From the NCBI GenBank assembly GCA_903895845.1, contig CAITVK010000019.1:1-51690 (forward strand): a DNA stretch of 51,690 bases, given 5' to 3'. The position numbers and the translations under genes were made by a program. Numbering within the stretch: position 1 is the stretch's first letter; each line of letters starts with the position of its first letter. Shown one piece after another: positions 35,688 to 51,690 of this stretch. The notes under the pieces are model-generated. The model was not told where the DNA came from and did no database searches. It saw only the letters and a program-made list of their open reading frames with translations. The stretch is from an uncultured Chitinophagaceae bacterium. Lineage in GTDB: Bacteria; Bacteroidota; Bacteroidia; Chitinophagales; Chitinophagaceae.

Positions 35688-35888
35688 ATTTAAACATTTT
35701 ACATAATTCTACTTCCACAAATAAACATAATCCTTCCTATCCTTTCCCAAACTATTTTTCCTTTGGCAATTGAGTGGCTTTAAATAGACATTGCGATTGA
35801 ACTAATTTTAAAAGTTCACAAGAAATTTAACCCCTTACCTATCCTCCAAAATAGTGAAAATGATAATATTCGCTTGGTGTATGCAACA

Positions 35889-35918
35889 AAAAAAAAGGGA
35901 CTGAATTACTTCAGCCCC
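35889..35918 (-). terminator. Intrinsic terminator after the second T9SS gene
   Basis: On the minus strand a GGGGCTGAA/TTCAGTCCC stem (35910-35918 with 35897-35905, one G-U pair, four-base loop) is followed by at least eight T (complement of 35889-35896). It follows the stop codon of the minus-strand gene ending at 35947. Confidence 0.85.
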
Positions 35919-35946
35919 CACTTGTATGGTAAGTACAAAAAGTGTG

Positions 35947-47192: not shown

Positions 47193-48191
47193 ATGCATAA
47201 GCAAGAAGATATTCAACAGTTAACAGCAGAAATTCAAAAGCAATCTGCCATCGTAGATAGGCTGCAATCCGAGTTGCACAAGGTGATAGTAGGGCAGGAA
47301 TTGATGATTAGCCGCTTACTCATCGGGCTGTTAAGCGATGGGCACGTACTGTTGGAAGGGGTGCCAGGGTTAGCAAAGACCTTAACTATCAAGTCGCTTG
47401 CAAAAGCAATTGATGCACCGTTCAGCCGTATTCAGTTTACACCCGATTTGCTCCCTGCCGATATTGTTGGAACCATGATTTATAACCAGCAACGCAATGA
47501 GTTTGTAGTTCGCAAAGGACCCGTCTTCTCCAATTTCGTACTGGCAGATGAGGTAAACCGGGCCCCTGCCAAAGTGCAGAGTGCTTTGTTGGAAGCCATG
47601 CAAGAGAAGCAAGTAACCATTGGTGATCAGTCTTATCCTTTAAGTGAGCCATTTCTGGTGTTGGCAACACAGAATCCCTTGGAACAGGAAGGTACTTATC
47701 CATTGCCCGAAGCGCAGGCAGACCGATTTATGATGAAGGTGGTAGTGGGCTATCCCGATAAACAGCAAGAACAATTGATTATCCGTCAACAGGTGCAAAG
47801 TTTAGCGTCACCTAAGATTAATCCGGTTGCGAGTATCAATGATATTTTAGCGGCACGTACCTTGGTGAAGAAGATTTATCTCGACGAAAAGATTGAGCAA
47901 TACATCATTGATATTGTGTTTGCTACTCGTTTCCCACAACAATATGGTCTTGGTAGGTTGCAAAGCATGATTAGTTATGGGGTATCACCAAGGGCTAGTA
48001 TTCATTTGGCTTTTGCTGCAAAGGCCTATGCGTTTATGGAAAAGCGCGCTTACGTAATTCCAGAAGACATCAAGGCAATTGCTAAGGATGTGTTGCGGCA
48101 TCGTATCGGTCTCACCTACGAAGCAGAGGCAGAGAACATCACCTCAGAAAAGATAATAGACGACATTCTGAAGGCAGTAAAAGTACCTTAA
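47193..48191 (+). CDS. MoxR-family AAA ATPase
   Basis: 332 residues. MoxR ATPases act as chaperones that mature or insert metal ions into partner complexes. The Walker A motif is VLLEGVPGLAKT near residue 55, Walker B is FVLADEVNRAPAKVQSALLEAMQE near 113, the sensor region FLVLATQNPLEQEGTYPLPEAQADRF follows, and the lid helices end with the usual EDIKAIAKDVLRHRIGL block. It heads the Bat operon: DUF58, BatD-like and BatA-like genes follow in order. An AGTTATGAG inverted repeat separates it from the DUF58 gene. The ATG at 47193 follows an AT-rich stretch. Confidence 0.93.
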   Translation: MHKQEDIQQLTAEIQKQSAIVDRLQSELHKVIVGQELMISRLLIGLLSDGHVLLEGVPGLAKTLTIKSLAKAIDAPFSRIQFTPDLLPADIVGTMIYNQQRNEFVVRKGPVFSNFVLADEVNRAPAKVQSALLEAMQEKQVTIGDQSYPLSEPFLVLATQNPLEQEGTYPLPEAQADRFMMKVVVGYPDKQQEQLIIRQQVQSLASPKINPVASINDILAARTLVKKIYLDEKIEQYIIDIVFATRFPQQYGLGRLQSMISYGVSPRASIHLAFAAKAYAFMEKRAYVIPEDIKAIAKDVLRHRIGLTYEAEAENITSEKIIDDILKAVKVP

Positions 48192-48192
48192 C

Positions 48193-48261
48193 TAGTTATA
48201 AGTTATGAGTGATGAGTTATGAGTATCTTCCATAACTTATAACTTATAACTCATAACTCAT
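48193..48261. repeat. AGTTATGAG-type inverted repeat, copy 3
   Basis: The left part (48193-48223, AGTTATAAGTTATGAGTGATGAGTTATGAG, broken here only by base changes) pairs with the right part (48231-48261, ATAACTTATAACTCATAACTCAT type). It lies in the 80-base gap between the MoxR and DUF58 genes, where an operon would normally be tight. Confidence 0.88.
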
Positions 48262-48271
48262 ATCTATCCTC

Positions 48272-49204
48272 ATGGGTTTCTTCAAGCAACTATTTAATAA
48301 GAAAGAACTTACAAATCGCCCTCCTTTAGGGGTTGGGGGTGGGGATGTGGGTGCTACTGCGGCTGTCCGCCATCTCGAAATAAAAAGCAAGCGACTCACC
48401 AATCACCTGTTCACCGGCGAATACCATTCTGCTTTTAAAGGAGTGGGAATGGTGTTTAAGGAAGTAAAAGAATACAATGCCGGCGATGACATCCGGTTTA
48501 TCGACTGGAATGTGAGTGCCAGAATGGGAACTACCTATAGTAAAGTATTTGAGGAGGAAAGGGAATTGTCGGTGTATATTCTGGTAGATGCTAGTGCCAG
48601 CAACTTGTTTGGAACGGGCAATCAGAGTAAGAAAGAATTGATTACAGAGATTACGGCGGTGCTTGCTTTTAGTGCCGCAAACAACAACGACAAGGCAGGG
48701 CTGATGCTATGCACCGACACAGTAGAAAAGTATATTCCACCCAAGAAGGGGCGGCAGCATATCTTGTATATGATGAAGGTATTGTTGAGCTTTCAGCCGA
48801 AAGCACTGAAAACAGATTTATCAAAGGCATTGCAATATCTTAATAATAATAGTAAACACAAAAGCATTGTATTTATACTAGGTGACTTTGCTGACAAAAA
48901 CTACGAACACCTGCTTCGTGTGGCGTCTAGGAAGCACGATGTAATAGGTATTCAGGTGTATGATAAAGCCGAGACTGCTTTACCCACGATGGGGATGGTA
49001 GAAATGGCGGATGCAGAAACAGGTGCTGTCAGATGGCTGGATACAAATAATCCTGCTACAAGGGCAGCTTGGCAAGAGCAACATTTGTGGTTGATGAACG
49101 AAACAAAGGAGATCTTCAAGCGGGCAGGTGCCGATTTGTTACAGATAGCTACAGGTGCCGATTACGTAAAAGTATTACAACAGTTTTTTATCAAACGAGG
49201 ATGA
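48272..49204 (+). CDS. DUF58 domain-containing protein of the Bat operon
   Basis: 310 residues. The family signature YHSAFKGVGMVFKEVKEYNAGDDIRFIDWNVSARM lies at about residues 51-85, followed by a von Willebrand-like fold (VYILVDASASN near 105). Residues about 15-26 (NRPPLGVGGGDVG) are unusual: family members pass straight from a short N-terminal helix to the RxLEIKSKRL segment. This stretch is encoded by the CTTTAGGGGTTGGGG repeat found also in the next gene. The frame is kept, so the protein is probably still made. DUF58 proteins work with MoxR and VWA partners in the envelope. The stop overlaps the next ATG by four bases. Confidence 0.92.
   Translation: MGFFKQLFNKKELTNRPPLGVGGGDVGATAAVRHLEIKSKRLTNHLFTGEYHSAFKGVGMVFKEVKEYNAGDDIRFIDWNVSARMGTTYSKVFEEERELSVYILVDASASNLFGTGNQSKKELITEITAVLAFSAANNNDKAGLMLCTDTVEKYIPPKKGRQHILYMMKVLLSFQPKALKTDLSKALQYLNNNSKHKSIVFILGDFADKNYEHLLRVASRKHDVIGIQVYDKAETALPTMGMVEMADAETGAVRWLDTNNPATRAAWQEQHLWLMNETKEIFKRAGADLLQIATGADYVKVLQQFFIKRG
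48319..48345. repeat. CTTTAGGGG-type repeat inside the DUF58 coding sequence
   Basis: CCTCCTTTAGGGGTTGGGGG followed by TGGGG. The 15-base word CTTTAGGGGTTGGGG (48324-48338) recurs at 49280-49294 in the next gene and is read in the same frame, giving PLGVGG both times. Its GC-rich, G-run composition differs from the surrounding sequence. Confidence 0.8.
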
Positions 49205-50220
49205 GGATGAGTCGTAAGTGGTTAGTTATAAGTCATAAGTCATCCTCCCTTGGTCGTGGGGGCTTATTCTGCTTCCTCCCTTTAGGGGTTGGGGGGTTCT
49301 TTCCCCCCTTTAGGGGACAGGGTTGGGGTTTCCTTTTCCTTCTTCTCTCCTTTTCCTCTTCCGCCCAAAAAGTATCTGCCATTGTTAGTCGGGACAAAAT
49401 AAGGATAGGCGAACAATTTGAGCTGAAGCTAAAGGTAGAACCCACTAGTAATGCTCCGCTTGCCATTGATAACTGGTTTGCCATACCCGATACCTTTCAG
49501 CACTTTCAGGTTGCATTGAGGCAACCGATTGATACCATCAATATCTCATCCACCAAAACCTACACACAGGTAATAAGTATCACGTCCTTTGATACAGGCA
49601 AGTTCACCCTTCCTGCTTTTAACGTGGTGATTGGCGGCAAGGAGTTCAGTACACGTGAGATAGCTATTAGTGTTTCCCCCGTTGATGTACACATGCGCAA
49701 AGACTATAATGACATTAAGGACATCATAGAACCCGAACCCGAGCAGGAATATACCATCTGGATAGCAATGGGGATTGTAGTGGTGTTGGTAATAGCGTTG
49801 TTCTTTATAATCCGTTGGTTGATTGGAAGACGAAAGCTGAATGCGTACGCGCCTTCGCAACCACTTACCATTGAGGAAGCCCTCCAGAAACTGGATGCCT
49901 TAGTGCCTGTGTATCAGGACAAAGAATATCAGTTATTCTTTATCCAGTTGATAGCAATCTGCAAGGGCTATTCCGACAATCAGTTGCACATTACTACCTA
50001 CAGCAAAACGACGGCGGAATATATATCGGTCATCAAGCAAAGGATAACCGACGAGACCTTGTTGCAGCAGTATATACAGTTATTACATTGGGCAGATAGT
50101 GTGAAGTTTGCTAAGTCCATCCCAACCACCGAGGAGTGCCAACAAAGTTTGGCCGATGCAAGAGCCTTACTCACCAACCTCCATTCTTCACAAAATAAAA
50201 CGGCTGCTAATGCAATTTGA
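49201..50220 (+). CDS. BatD-like membrane protein, N-terminus altered by repeats
   Basis: 339 residues from the ATG at 49201, which overlaps the DUF58 stop (ATGA); the frame is also open upstream, but only as an overlap with that gene. The mature part (AIVSRDKIRIGEQFELKLKVEPT...) is the immunoglobulin-like strand pattern of BatD-type proteins. A membrane helix (IWIAMGIVVVLVIALFFII) lies near residue 187-205, and a cytoplasmic helical domain (TIEEALQKLDALVP... LLQQYIQLLHWADSVKFAK) follows. Residues about 7-43 are repeat-derived: LVISHKS from an AGTTATAAGTCATAAG repeat and LPLGVGGFFPPFRGQGWG from the TTTAGGGG repeat. Only then comes the signal-peptide core (FLFLLLSFSSSAQ). It works with BatA in envelope stress or aerotolerance. 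Confidence 0.88.
   Translation: MRMSRKWLVISHKSSSLGRGGLFCFLPLGVGGFFPPFRGQGWGFLFLLLSFSSSAQKVSAIVSRDKIRIGEQFELKLKVEPTSNAPLAIDNWFAIPDTFQHFQVALRQPIDTINISSTKTYTQVISITSFDTGKFTLPAFNVVIGGKEFSTREIAISVSPVDVHMRKDYNDIKDIIEPEPEQEYTIWIAMGIVVVLVIALFFIIRWLIGRRKLNAYAPSQPLTIEEALQKLDALVPVYQDKEYQLFFIQLIAICKGYSDNQLHITTYSKTTAEYISVIKQRITDETLLQQYIQLLHWADSVKFAKSIPTTEECQQSLADARALLTNLHSSQNKTAANAI
49211..49345. repeat. Composite repeat insertion at the 5' end of the BatD-like gene
   Basis: Two repeat families lie side by side within codons 4-48. 49211-49240 is a truncated AGTTATGAG-family element (TTAGTTATAAGTCATAAGTC). 49275-49340 has CTTTAGGGGTTGGGG, then a G6-TTCTTT-C6 hairpin (49291-49296 with 49303-49308) and a second CTTTAGGGG copy. 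Neither matches the usual gene start of this family. Confidence 0.8.
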
Positions 50221-51205
50221 TTCGTGGCAACATATAGCGTTCGCATACCCTTGGCTATTGCCATTGCTGCTCCTGATACCCTATCTCATCTATTGGCAAT
50301 GGGCAAGCAAGGACAAGAGTGGAGCGGCATTAAGGGTGAGTACCTTACAATTTTTGCTCCCTACCAATAGTTGGAAATTACGCTTACGTCCATTACCCTT
50401 CATCCTCAGGATACTGGCATTGACAAGTCTGATTATTGCACTTGCCAGACCACAGGAAAAGTTTACGGATGAGCAAACGTCGGGCGAAGGCATTGATGTA
50501 GTGCTTTGTTTCGACATCAGTGGGAGTATGACGAGTCAGGACTTTAAGCCCGACCGGCTCGAAGCTGCCAAAGAGATAGCCACCAACTTTGTGCAGAAGC
50601 GTCCCGGCGACCGGATAGGTATTGTGATATTCAGTAGTCAGAGTTTTACGCTTTGCCCTATTACCGTTGACCACAATGCCGTGTTGAATCAGATTAATAC
50701 CATTCAGAACGGGTACCTCACCGAAGATGGAACGGCCATCGGCTCAGGCCTCGCAACCAGTGTGGATCGGTTAAAAGACAGTAAAGCAAAGACCAAGATT
50801 GTGATATTGATGACCGATGGGGTTGACTTTGGTGGGGTGATCCCGCCCGATATTGCCGAGAACCTCGCTAAGCTTTACGGCGTAAAAGTATATTGTATTG
50901 GGATAGGCACCAATCAGGTGTCGGATGGCAACCCCAATGCAGCCGCGGCTACGGGTAAGTTGAGTTTTAACGATGGATTATTGAAGCATATAAGTAGTGC
51001 TACAGGTGGACAATACTTTACCGCTGCCAGCAAGGAAAGCCTCGAAAGCAGCTACGAAGCCATCGATAAACTAGAGAAAAGCAAGATAGAAACTACCACC
51101 TACCATCATTTCTCCGAACTCTTTTTGCCGTTTGTACTCTTTGGATTAGCCTGTGTGGTGCTGGAGTTACTGCTACGATTGACGGTGTTGAGGAAGTTCC
51201 CGTAG
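50210..51205 (+). CDS. BatA-like VWA-domain membrane protein
   Basis: 331 residues from the ATG at 50210, which overlaps the previous stop by 11 bases. Membrane helices near residues 13-30 and 60-75 precede a von Willebrand A domain. Its metal-ion site is complete: DISGSM near residue 104, a Thr later in the domain, and TDGVDFG. A C-terminal membrane helix (LFLPFVLFGLACVVLELLL) anchors it again, as in BatA. Together with MoxR, DUF58 and BatD-like proteins it forms the Bacteroides aerotolerance-type system. In related genomes batB and batC (VWA and TPR genes) usually follow; here they do not. Confidence 0.92.
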   Translation: MQFDSWQHIAFAYPWLLPLLLLIPYLIYWQWASKDKSGAALRVSTLQFLLPTNSWKLRLRPLPFILRILALTSLIIALARPQEKFTDEQTSGEGIDVVLCFDISGSMTSQDFKPDRLEAAKEIATNFVQKRPGDRIGIVIFSSQSFTLCPITVDHNAVLNQINTIQNGYLTEDGTAIGSGLATSVDRLKDSKAKTKIVILMTDGVDFGGVIPPDIAENLAKLYGVKVYCIGIGTNQVSDGNPNAAAATGKLSFNDGLLKHISSATGGQYFTAASKESLESSYEAIDKLEKSKIETTTYHHFSELFLPFVLFGLACVVLELLLRLTVLRKFP

Positions 51206-51450
51206 TAAGAATTAAAAAGTTATCTTTCAACTGCTTGTTGCAACCTGTCATTGATTGTTTTCCCAAGCCTGGTTATTGCAATTTTGCAACTATTTTATTC
51301 TATGCCAGATTTATAACGTCAACCGAAACTACTGCTAAAAGAAAGCACTATTTCTGAATTTCTTCCGTCCTTTAGATTTGCTTTTTAATTATTCACTTAA
51401 AATATTACTATTATTACTCTTTCTTTTTTTGCTACTTTTTTTCTTTAACA

Positions 51451-51608
51451 ATCCACACTTTTGTGTGGATAACACTTAACCAGCAGCAGTGGCACTTTCT
51501 ACTTCCGTCAGGGTTTGCAACCCATTTGCAGATAAAATCCACTGCTGCCTTTTCCCTTGGTGTCCATATAGCAATTAGGGTTAATTACCCATTATTAAGG
51601 ACTAGGAC
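51451..51608 (+). ncRNA. Candidate IS110 bridge RNA
   Basis: Three stem-loops lie in series. (1) 51451-51458 with 51463-51470, a perfect 8-bp stem with a TTTT loop. (2) 51483-51492 with 51539-51548, a perfect 10-bp stem (GCAGCAGTGG) that encloses an 18/15-base internal loop and a GGGTT-TGC-AACCC tip (51511-51523). (3) GTCC/GGAC (51562-51565 with 51599-51602) around an internal loop and a GGGT/ACCC tip (51578-51581 with 51587-51590). The order matches IS621-type bridge RNA: a 5' stem-loop, a target-binding loop and a donor-binding loop. The total of 158 bases is close to the known 177-base example. The third loop is the least certain. Confidence 0.55.
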
Positions 51609-51655
51609 GATGGGGCAAAATGGTTAAGCATTGATTACAAAATAAATATAAAAAG

Positions 51656-51690
51656 ATGGAAACAAGTATTAAATTTTATCTGGGTATCGA
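51656..51690 (+). CDS. N-terminus of an IS110-family transposase (partial)
   Basis: Eleven codons are visible before the window ends: METSIKFYLGI. The element (K/R)(F/Y)YLGI followed by D is the start of the DEDD RuvC-like domain in IS110 transposases, whose first catalytic Asp is the next residue in most members; the last two bases shown (GA) are compatible with Asp. The ATG is preceded by a short AT-rich stretch and the candidate bridge RNA. On eleven residues alone the call would be weak; the RNA structure upstream raises it. Confidence 0.6.
   Translation, partial: METSIKFYLGI

What the first reader, a model, noticed from the sequence alone, without database searches (positions are those of the whole stretch)
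51451..51690. Bridge-RNA-like structure upstream of a probable IS110 transposase
Three stem-loops, the second with a large internal loop closed by a perfect 10-bp stem, lie in order directly before a reading frame beginning METSIKFYLGI. Known IS110 (IS621) bridge RNAs have a 5' stem-loop, a target-binding loop and a donor-binding loop encoded in the left end. Perfect stems of 8 and 10 bp in a non-coding stretch are seen directly. Calling it a bridge RNA is inference from family knowledge. It would be a programmable recombinase of a Bacteroidota type.
Basis: partly seen in the sequence, partly recalled or inferred. Interest (0 to 1): 0.85.

Follow-up and report, generated by a model that had tools for sequence, protein, structure and literature searches.

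The report
Guide-RNA jumping gene aimed at integron-like cassettes
The window ends inside a small jumping gene of the IS110 family whose own guide ("bridge") RNA matches, and so probably aims it at, the repeated joining sites of an integron-like gene-capture system in the same bacterium.

Summary
The frame from 51656 runs off the contig, but another contig of the same genome overlaps its last 141 bases and completes it: an IS110-family recombinase (Pfam DEDD plus Transposase_20; solved relatives IS621, ISCro4). The hairpins at 51451-51627 are its bridge RNA. A covariance model from 12 relatives, this sequence left out, finds 51474-51629 at 149 bits; the next place in the window has 17. The target-loop stem covaries, target guides match each element's own flanks (0 of 20,000 permutations as good), and donor-loop variants match the element ends in 13 of 13. 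The core is TC; the element is 1337 bp from 51370.

It occurs in 9 of 13 genomes of the genus; in the four looked at it lies in gene-cassette arrays, each site's end complementary to the next site's start (95 of 102 bases; permuted mean 53). Seven loci of a tyrosine recombinase short in the integron-specific insertion follow SSB; five have a candidate attI 129 bases on. This copy may be inactive: its right flank pairs poorly with its guide and its stop codon is lost. Nothing was tested by experiment.

The parts
51323..51369 (-). Piece of the attC-like target repeat (the repeat's own sense is the minus strand); left flank of the insertion
   Evidence: 94% match to the genus repeat; empty copies aligned
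51362..51367 (+). Left target LT, CTTCCG
   Evidence: 6 of 7 scored positions equal the LTG guide
51368..51369 (+). Core dinucleotide TC shared by left junction, right junction and empty site
51370..51655 (+). Left end (LE) of the IS110 element, non-coding, 286 bp, starts CTTTAGATTTGC
   Evidence: Start CTTTAG in own plus 12 relatives
51451..51470 (+). 5' stem-loop of the bridge RNA (8-bp stem)
   Evidence: 83% of cells paired in 13 sequences, 2 of 8 pairs with change on both sides, innermost pair absent in 9 of 13
51476..51481 (+). 5' strand of the enclosing helix TTAACC
   Evidence: 96% of cells paired, but covariation no better than shuffles (82/500)
51483..51548 (+). Target-binding loop: 10-bp stem, internal loop, apical hairpin
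   Evidence: 99% of cells paired; 7 of the 9 stem pairs counted have compensatory change
51501..51509 (+). Left target guide (LTG) ACTTCCG plus core TC
51525..51532 (+). Right target guide (RTG) TTTGCA plus core-pairing GA; fits TC-TGCAA(G) of the empty repeat
51550..51620 (+). Donor-binding loop with apical hairpin GGGT/ACCC and inner stem GTCC/GGAC
   Evidence: inner stem 90% paired, 2 of 4 pairs with change on both sides
51568..51575 (+). Left donor guide ATAGCAAT, as in the right end of the element (CATAGCAATC)
   Evidence: variant positions agree with the right end in 13 of 13 elements
51597..51602 (+). Right donor guide AAGGAC, complementary to core plus left end (TCCTT)
51622..51627 (+). 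3' strand of the enclosing helix GGTTAA
51656..51690 (+). Start of the IS110 recombinase gene; the whole gene is on contig C134 (L003:6475 down to 5384), 363 codons there

Best explanation
This is the left end of an IS110-group insertion sequence (1337 bp between cores, core TC) in a genome of the family Chitinophagaceae. The non-coding left end encodes a bridge RNA with a 5' stem-loop, a target-binding loop and a donor-binding loop. By the mechanism established for IS621, the recombinase would bind this RNA; the donor loop would pair with the joined ends of the excised element (ATAGCAA-TC-CTT) and the target loop with ACTTCCG-TC-TGCAA, and recombination would occur at the TC core without target duplication. 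The matching target in this host is a repeated attC-like recombination site of gene-cassette arrays, so the element is programmed to live in those sites. Shown by sequence: family of the protein, structure conservation, boundaries, core, empty sites, guide matches, attC-like behaviour of the target. Inferred: that the RNA is made, is bound, and guides recombination; that this copy is or was active.
For: Recombinase: PF02371 E 2.2e-23 and PF01548 E 2.6e-19; NF033542 'IS110 family RNA-guided transposase' 191 bits, cut-off 140; PDB IS621 E 4e-25, ISCro4 E 7e-22. D12, E68, D108, D111 and S257-G258 align with IS621 D11, E60, D102, D105, S241-G242 (roles of those residues from passages of PMC11208158); E, D, D and SG are in 13 of 13, the first D in the 11 whose N-terminal piece was aligned. 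RNA: fold z -3.8; 13 of 30 RNAalifold pairs with change on both sides; covariation score of a hand-drawn structure 0.282 against 0.148 +/- 0.014 in shuffles (0 of 500) and at most 0.125 when slid; held-out model 149.1 bits, E 3e-34, and the same model finds an RNA not in its training set 27 bases before a 35%-identical transposase (46.9 bits). Guides: LT 55 of 77 and RT 59 of 78 Watson-Crick positions, permuted means 31 and 31, 0 of 20,000; with two near-duplicates dropped 0 of 50,000; flanks displaced by 1-4 nt match at 0.16-0.38 per position instead of 0.71 and 0.76. Donor: three right-end variants, 13 of 13 concordant. Target: 10 of 10 places in the genome within one mismatch of CTTCCGTCTGCAAG lie in the repeat; two remnants of the same element type (C53 of this genome and G595:C210) end at the same base of other repeat copies.
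Against: This copy's own right flank (TC-CTTTAT) pairs with its RTG at only 1 Watson-Crick and 1 wobble of 6 positions. Its recombinase has lost the family stop (TAA reads TCA) and runs past the right end into the flank. The element is split over two contigs that meet in an exact 141-base overlap, so the halves could come from two copies. The enclosing helix alone is not supported by covariation (82 of 500 shuffles as good); the 5' stem-loop is weakly supported, and the count of further pair types is no higher than in shuffles (459 of 500 as high). Relatedness among the 13 elements weakens the permutation tests. No expression data.
Confidence: 0.9

Rival explanations
1. The hairpins are ordinary 5' leader structures (a terminator or attenuator shielding the transposase gene from read-through), and target choice is made by the protein alone.
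For: They lie directly before the gene, and the second hairpin is followed by TTTT at 51550-51553.
Against: Loop sequences, not only stems, track each element's own flanks and ends; the layout is that described for IS621 (5' stem-loop, variable first loop, conserved second loop; section 6 of PMC11208160). A leader would have no reason to match the insertion site.
Confidence: 0.04
2. It is a bridge RNA, but this copy is a dead relic that no longer moves.
For: Stop codon lost, poor RTG match at its own right flank, one full copy and one 47-residue remnant in the genome.
Against: Frame open over the whole conserved protein with the catalytic residues present; RNA structure and donor guides intact.
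Confidence: 0.35
3. The target repeat is a plain dispersed repeat (MITE or REP type) that happens to be spaced between genes, not an attC site.
For: Some copies are single or partly degenerate, including the one in the window; no gene in 13 genus genomes passes the integron integrase cut-off; three of the nine repeat-bearing genomes (G199, G595, G596) lack the recombinase at E 1e-40.
Against: Arrays of gene then repeat, nearly all in one direction; each site's end complements the start of the next site, 95 of 102 bases, permuted mean 53, 0 of 20,000, the mark of cassette exchange at GTT (general knowledge of integrons); five bottom strands fold at z -2.1 to -4.8; candidate attI at the same distance after the recombinase in 5 of 7 loci.
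Confidence: 0.1

Closest known systems
IS621 / ISCro4 bridge recombinases (IS110 group)
   Same: DEDD plus Tnp domains with the catalytic residues, bridge RNA in the long left end, 5' stem-loop then target loop then donor loop, 5' arm of each loop reading as the top strand and 3' arm as its complement, dinucleotide core, insertion into repeated sites (REP elements for IS621, passage).
   Different: Distant protein (phmmer E 4e-25); core TC instead of CT; a predicted helix CTAACC/GGTTAG encloses both loops, which the passages I read do not mention for IS621; target is an attC-like site.
IS1111-group elements that target attC, such as ISKpn4 and ISPst6 (passages of PMC11187229; the original papers seen only as citations)
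   Same: RNA-guided DEDD transposase that targets one end of integron attC sites.
   Different: Those have the RNA downstream of the gene; this one has it upstream, and its attC-like sites belong to a different platform in Chitinophagaceae.
Integrons (IntI, attI, attC cassettes)
   Same: Arrays of gene-attC cassettes mostly in one direction, crossover at GTT, foldable sites, candidate attI next to a tyrosine recombinase.
   Different: The recombinase scores 163 bits against a TIGR02249 cut-off of 265 and has 26 residues where IntI4 has 66 between the two aligned stretches, taken here as the place of the integron-specific insertion; in the window's genus it follows an SSB gene and points the same way as the cassettes; the five sites measured are 204 nt.

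Membership tests
IS110 family (DEDD recombinase) | DEDD_Tnp_IS110 and Transposase_20 domains | tested here: met
   both over the gathering score; NF033542 over its cut-off
IS110 family (DEDD recombinase) | Catalytic D, E, D, D and S | tested here: met
IS110 group (not IS1111) | Bridge RNA in a left end longer than the right end | tested here: met
   LE 286 bp; this copy ends about 28 bp after the family stop position; RNA at 51474-51629 upstream of the gene
IS110 group (not IS1111) | No sub-terminal inverted repeats of 7-17 bp | not tested
   No systematic search was made
IS110 bridge RNA | 5' stem-loop, target loop and donor loop conserved by covariation | tested here: met
   target stem and inner donor stem covary; the 5' stem-loop is only weakly supported
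IS110 bridge RNA | Target loop complementary to both sides of the insertion site, over the set of elements | tested here: met
IS110 bridge RNA | Target loop complementary to the right side in this very copy | tested here: not met
   1 Watson-Crick and 1 wobble of 6; remnants C53 and G595:C210 have 5 and 1 of 6
IS110 bridge RNA | Donor loop complementary to the element's joined ends | tested here: met
   13 of 13 for the left donor guide
IS110 bridge RNA | RNA expressed and bound by the recombinase; circular intermediate | not testable with these tools
   needs wet experiments
Integron (for the target platform) | attC sites with R' of one site complementary to R'' of the next | tested here: met
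   95 of 102 over 17 of 21 neighbouring pairs; 4 pairs dropped because an end was not recognised
Integron (for the target platform) | attI beside the recombinase gene | tested here: met
   Candidate site at +129 in 5 of 7 loci; first-cassette nonamer exact at +129 in two of them. Of the other two, the G285:C199 contig ends 194 nt after the gene, and G047:C41 has its nonamer at +749
Integron (for the target platform) | IntI integrase with the integron-specific insertion | tested here: not met
   0 of 13 genus genomes over the TIGR02249 cut-off; insertion region shortened

The most novel reading that the evidence does not exclude
A branch of left-end (IS110-group) bridge-RNA elements has its guides programmed to attC-type sites of an integron-like platform in Chitinophagaceae (SSB, a Xer-like tyrosine recombinase short in the integron-specific insertion, attI, arrays of cassettes with sites of about 204 nt) that my searches did not find described. 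The same left guide ACTTCCG recurs in two elements of another genus (G058), one of which sits in a site with GCCTAAC...GTTAGGG ends, so targeting of such sites would be older than the genus.
Probability: 0.6. Interest if true: 0.78.

Novelty: new variant of a known kind. Interest (0 to 1): 0.62.

Why it matters
It gives a naturally programmed bridge RNA whose target can be read and checked in its own genome, with many empty target copies. Words beginning 'Bacteroid' do not occur in the main text of PMC11208160, nor 'Bacteroidetes' in PMC11187229, though their large data sets may well include the phylum. It shows an RNA-guided element using a gene-capture system's recombination sites as a home, arrived at from the IS110 side as well as the known IS1111 side. 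And it leads to what looks like an integron-type cassette system run by a recombinase short in the insertion that a passage of PMC8138268 calls essential for integron function, though not fully conserved in its subgroup; that would make testable how little an integron needs.

Tried and rejected
Rfam scan of the window: nothing at gathering thresholds. The second-best hit of the bridge model in the window (35816-35927 minus, 16.9 bits, E 0.026, 36% GC) looks like chance: the transposase search of the genome found no match elsewhere on this contig. RNAalifold's consensus of the donor loop differs from the single-sequence folds; I used a hand-drawn structure, chosen after seeing the alignment, so it leans on these sequences. 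Relatives left out of the 13-row alignment: L007 and L008 (same loci as L011 and L012), L001-L004 (the own element), and the partial matches L005, L020, L021, L022. Two of 13 elements (L010, L017) lack enough left flank and were left out of the LT test. In the order, at E 1e-95, one further full relative was new (L019). Eight plasmid records carry relatives below 40% identity, in genera I know as Bacteroidota; not pursued. In four more distant recombinase loci (L158, L160, L161, L162) no SSB match was found and a strict 8-mer search gave no clean attC series, although repeats lie after the gene in the two of them searched for repeats. On C134 the nonamer expected from the site that holds this element was not found. 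In the 17 cassette neighbour pairs two score only 4 and 3 of 6. Literature: no paper holds both 'bridge RNA' and 'Bacteroidota'; searches for integrons with Chitinophagaceae, Bacteroidetes or Bacteroidota, for IS110 with attC, and for integron-like tyrosine recombinases listed no paper that I recognised as describing this; most were seen only as titles and abstract starts, so this is weak evidence of absence.

Full report
WHERE IT LIES. The window is contig C19 of a 4.01-Mb, 138-contig genome. The last 141 bases of the window equal the end of contig C134, which carries the whole frame. An exact overlap of 141 bases looks like an assembly k-mer (inference), so the join is likely but not proven.

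THE PROTEIN. The frame has 363 codons. It matches both IS110 Pfam domains, passes the NCBIfam model for IS110 RNA-guided transposases, and by phmmer its only solved relatives at E 0.01 are IS621 and ISCro4. Residues that align with IS621's D11, E60, D102, D105 and S241-G242 are present (their roles from passages of PMC11208158). Twelve distinct relatives of 46-62% identity were collected, eleven from Chitinophagaceae and one from another family of the order. The own protein is 23 residues longer than the family length because TAA is replaced by TCA; it reads through the right end into the flank.

BOUNDARIES AND CORE. All 13 elements start CTTTAG after TC and end ATA[G/A][C/A]AATC. Empty copies of the target in the own genome read CTTCCG-TC-TGCAAG. 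Left junction, right junction and empty site share TC and no more, so the core is TC without further duplication. The element is 1337 bp, with 286 bp of left end and about 28 bp after the family stop position, the shape described for the IS110 group (section 12 of PMC11208160).

THE RNA. In 13 aligned left ends the target-loop stem is 99% paired with compensatory change at 7 of 9 counted pairs; over the whole hand-drawn structure the covariation score is 0.282 against 0.148 +/- 0.014 in shuffles and at most 0.125 in slid versions. The number of further pair types does not exceed shuffles (459 of 500 as high), and the enclosing helix alone is no better than shuffles (82 of 500). A model from 12 relatives, this sequence left out, gives 149.1 bits at 51474-51629, the next place 16.9. 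The same model finds an RNA not in its training set just before a 35%-identical transposase in G058.

GUIDES. [quoted passage not shown] Read that way, target guides match each element's own flanks at 55 of 77 positions (LT, 11 of 13 elements) and 59 of 78 (RT, 13 elements); 20,000 permutations never reach either. Dropping two near-duplicates leaves 0 of 50,000, and shifting the flanks by 1-4 bases drops the match to 0.16-0.38 per position from 0.71 and 0.76. Left donor guides follow the three right-end variants in 13 of 13. For this copy LT matches 6 of 7, but RT only 1 of 6 with one wobble; two remnants elsewhere have RT TGCAAG, which pairs at 5 plus 1 wobble, and an empty copy has LT matching 7 of 7. 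So the guide fits the repeat family, while this insertion sits in a variant copy, or its right half belongs to another insertion.

THE TARGET. The repeat has 23 matches in this genome and occurs in 9 of 13 genomes of the genus. In six loci from four of those genomes (G285, G135, G047, own) it lies in arrays, gene then repeat; three short frames, two of them across a repeat, and one gene at an array end run the other way. The bases after the closing GTT of one site complement those before the opening AAC of the next: 95 of 102 positions in 17 of 21 neighbour pairs, permuted mean 53.1, 0 of 20,000. That is what crossover between G and TT of integron cassettes produces (general knowledge of integrons). 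Five of the 27 sites extracted were folded; each is 204 nt and its bottom strand has z -2.1 to -4.8. All 10 genome places within one mismatch of the 14-base target lie in this repeat. The insertion point is about 30 bases inside one end of the site.

THE PLATFORM. Seven recombinase genes of at least 59% identity over nearly the whole length occur in six of 13 genus genomes, all six carrying the repeat; three repeat-bearing genomes (G199, G595 and the 67%-complete G596) have none at E 1e-40. SSB precedes the gene in 7 of 7, once cut by the contig end. A conserved site ending in GTT lies at exactly +129 after the gene in five of the seven loci, beyond which sequences diverge; in G135:C126 and G135:C176 the bases there match the first attC. 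The protein is nearest XerC-like, IntI4 and XerA chains, falls below the integron cut-offs and has 26 residues where IntI4 has 66. Relatives at E 1e-70 or better occur in 94 of 294 family genomes; whether those also run cassettes was looked at in four loci, where SSB was not found. Integrons are reported from Bacteroidota, for example Salinibacter (passages of PMC9024848, and PMC8618304).

SECOND GENUS. In G058 two elements (L016, L018) carry the same left guide ACTTCCG and match both flanks well. The joined flanks of L016 show GCCTAAC...GTTAGGG ends; L018's site shows no such clean ends by eye. L018 lies about 7 kb after a relative of the recombinase on the same contig, among intergenic repeats. 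The other relatives have other flanks and guides.

PAPERS. PMC11208160: abstract and outline, sections 6 and 12, passages. Passages only: PMC11208158, PMC11187229, PMC9024848, PMC8618304, PMC9668308, PMC12444791 (one reference-list entry), PMC8138268. Others were seen in search listings.

VERDICT. As a bridge RNA alone it is a new member of a known kind; its attC-type target, reached from the IS110 side, makes it a variant worth attention, and the integron-like platform may be the larger find. All function is inferred from sequence.

Noticed in passing
L129:297-7832 (G135:C126); L143 and L077 (own contig C98); L127, L128, L144, L145, L146, L147, L120: Integron-like platform: SSB gene, 411-443-aa tyrosine recombinase short in the integron-specific insertion, candidate attI at +129, arrays of gene cassettes with attC-type sites of about 204 nt. 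Of seven cassette proteins tested six had no Pfam match and one a sub-threshold HEPN hit.
   Followed up: partly
L003:2727-2834 (own contig C134): Remnant of the C-terminus of the same recombinase (81% identical over 36 residues) near an MBOAT gene and the repeat that holds the IS110 element: perhaps a decayed second platform.
   Followed up: partly
window 51550-51690 and L003:6441-6581: Contigs C19 and C134 overlap by exactly 141 bases and both stop there, inside the element; C134 begins just after the target-loop stem. A graph fork or a second copy with a different left half is possible.
   Followed up: no
L005:1480-1690 (G000:C53) and L021:1480-1690 (G595:C210): Remnants of the 3' end of the same element type, each ending at the same base of an attC-like site.
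   Followed up: yes
L028 (G000:C96:1773-1791 minus) and L003:5399-5425: A variant target with CTTTATATTTAC after the TC core resembles the element's own left end CTTTAGATTTGC; it could be a scar of a lost element or chance.
   Followed up: no
L158:15967-17155 (G058:C3): Another IS110 element, 35% identical, with its own bridge RNA recognised by the model, about 3.5 kb from L018.
   Followed up: partly
window 47193-51205: MoxR-type AAA gene, DUF58 gene and a BatA-type VWA gene just before the element.
   Followed up: no
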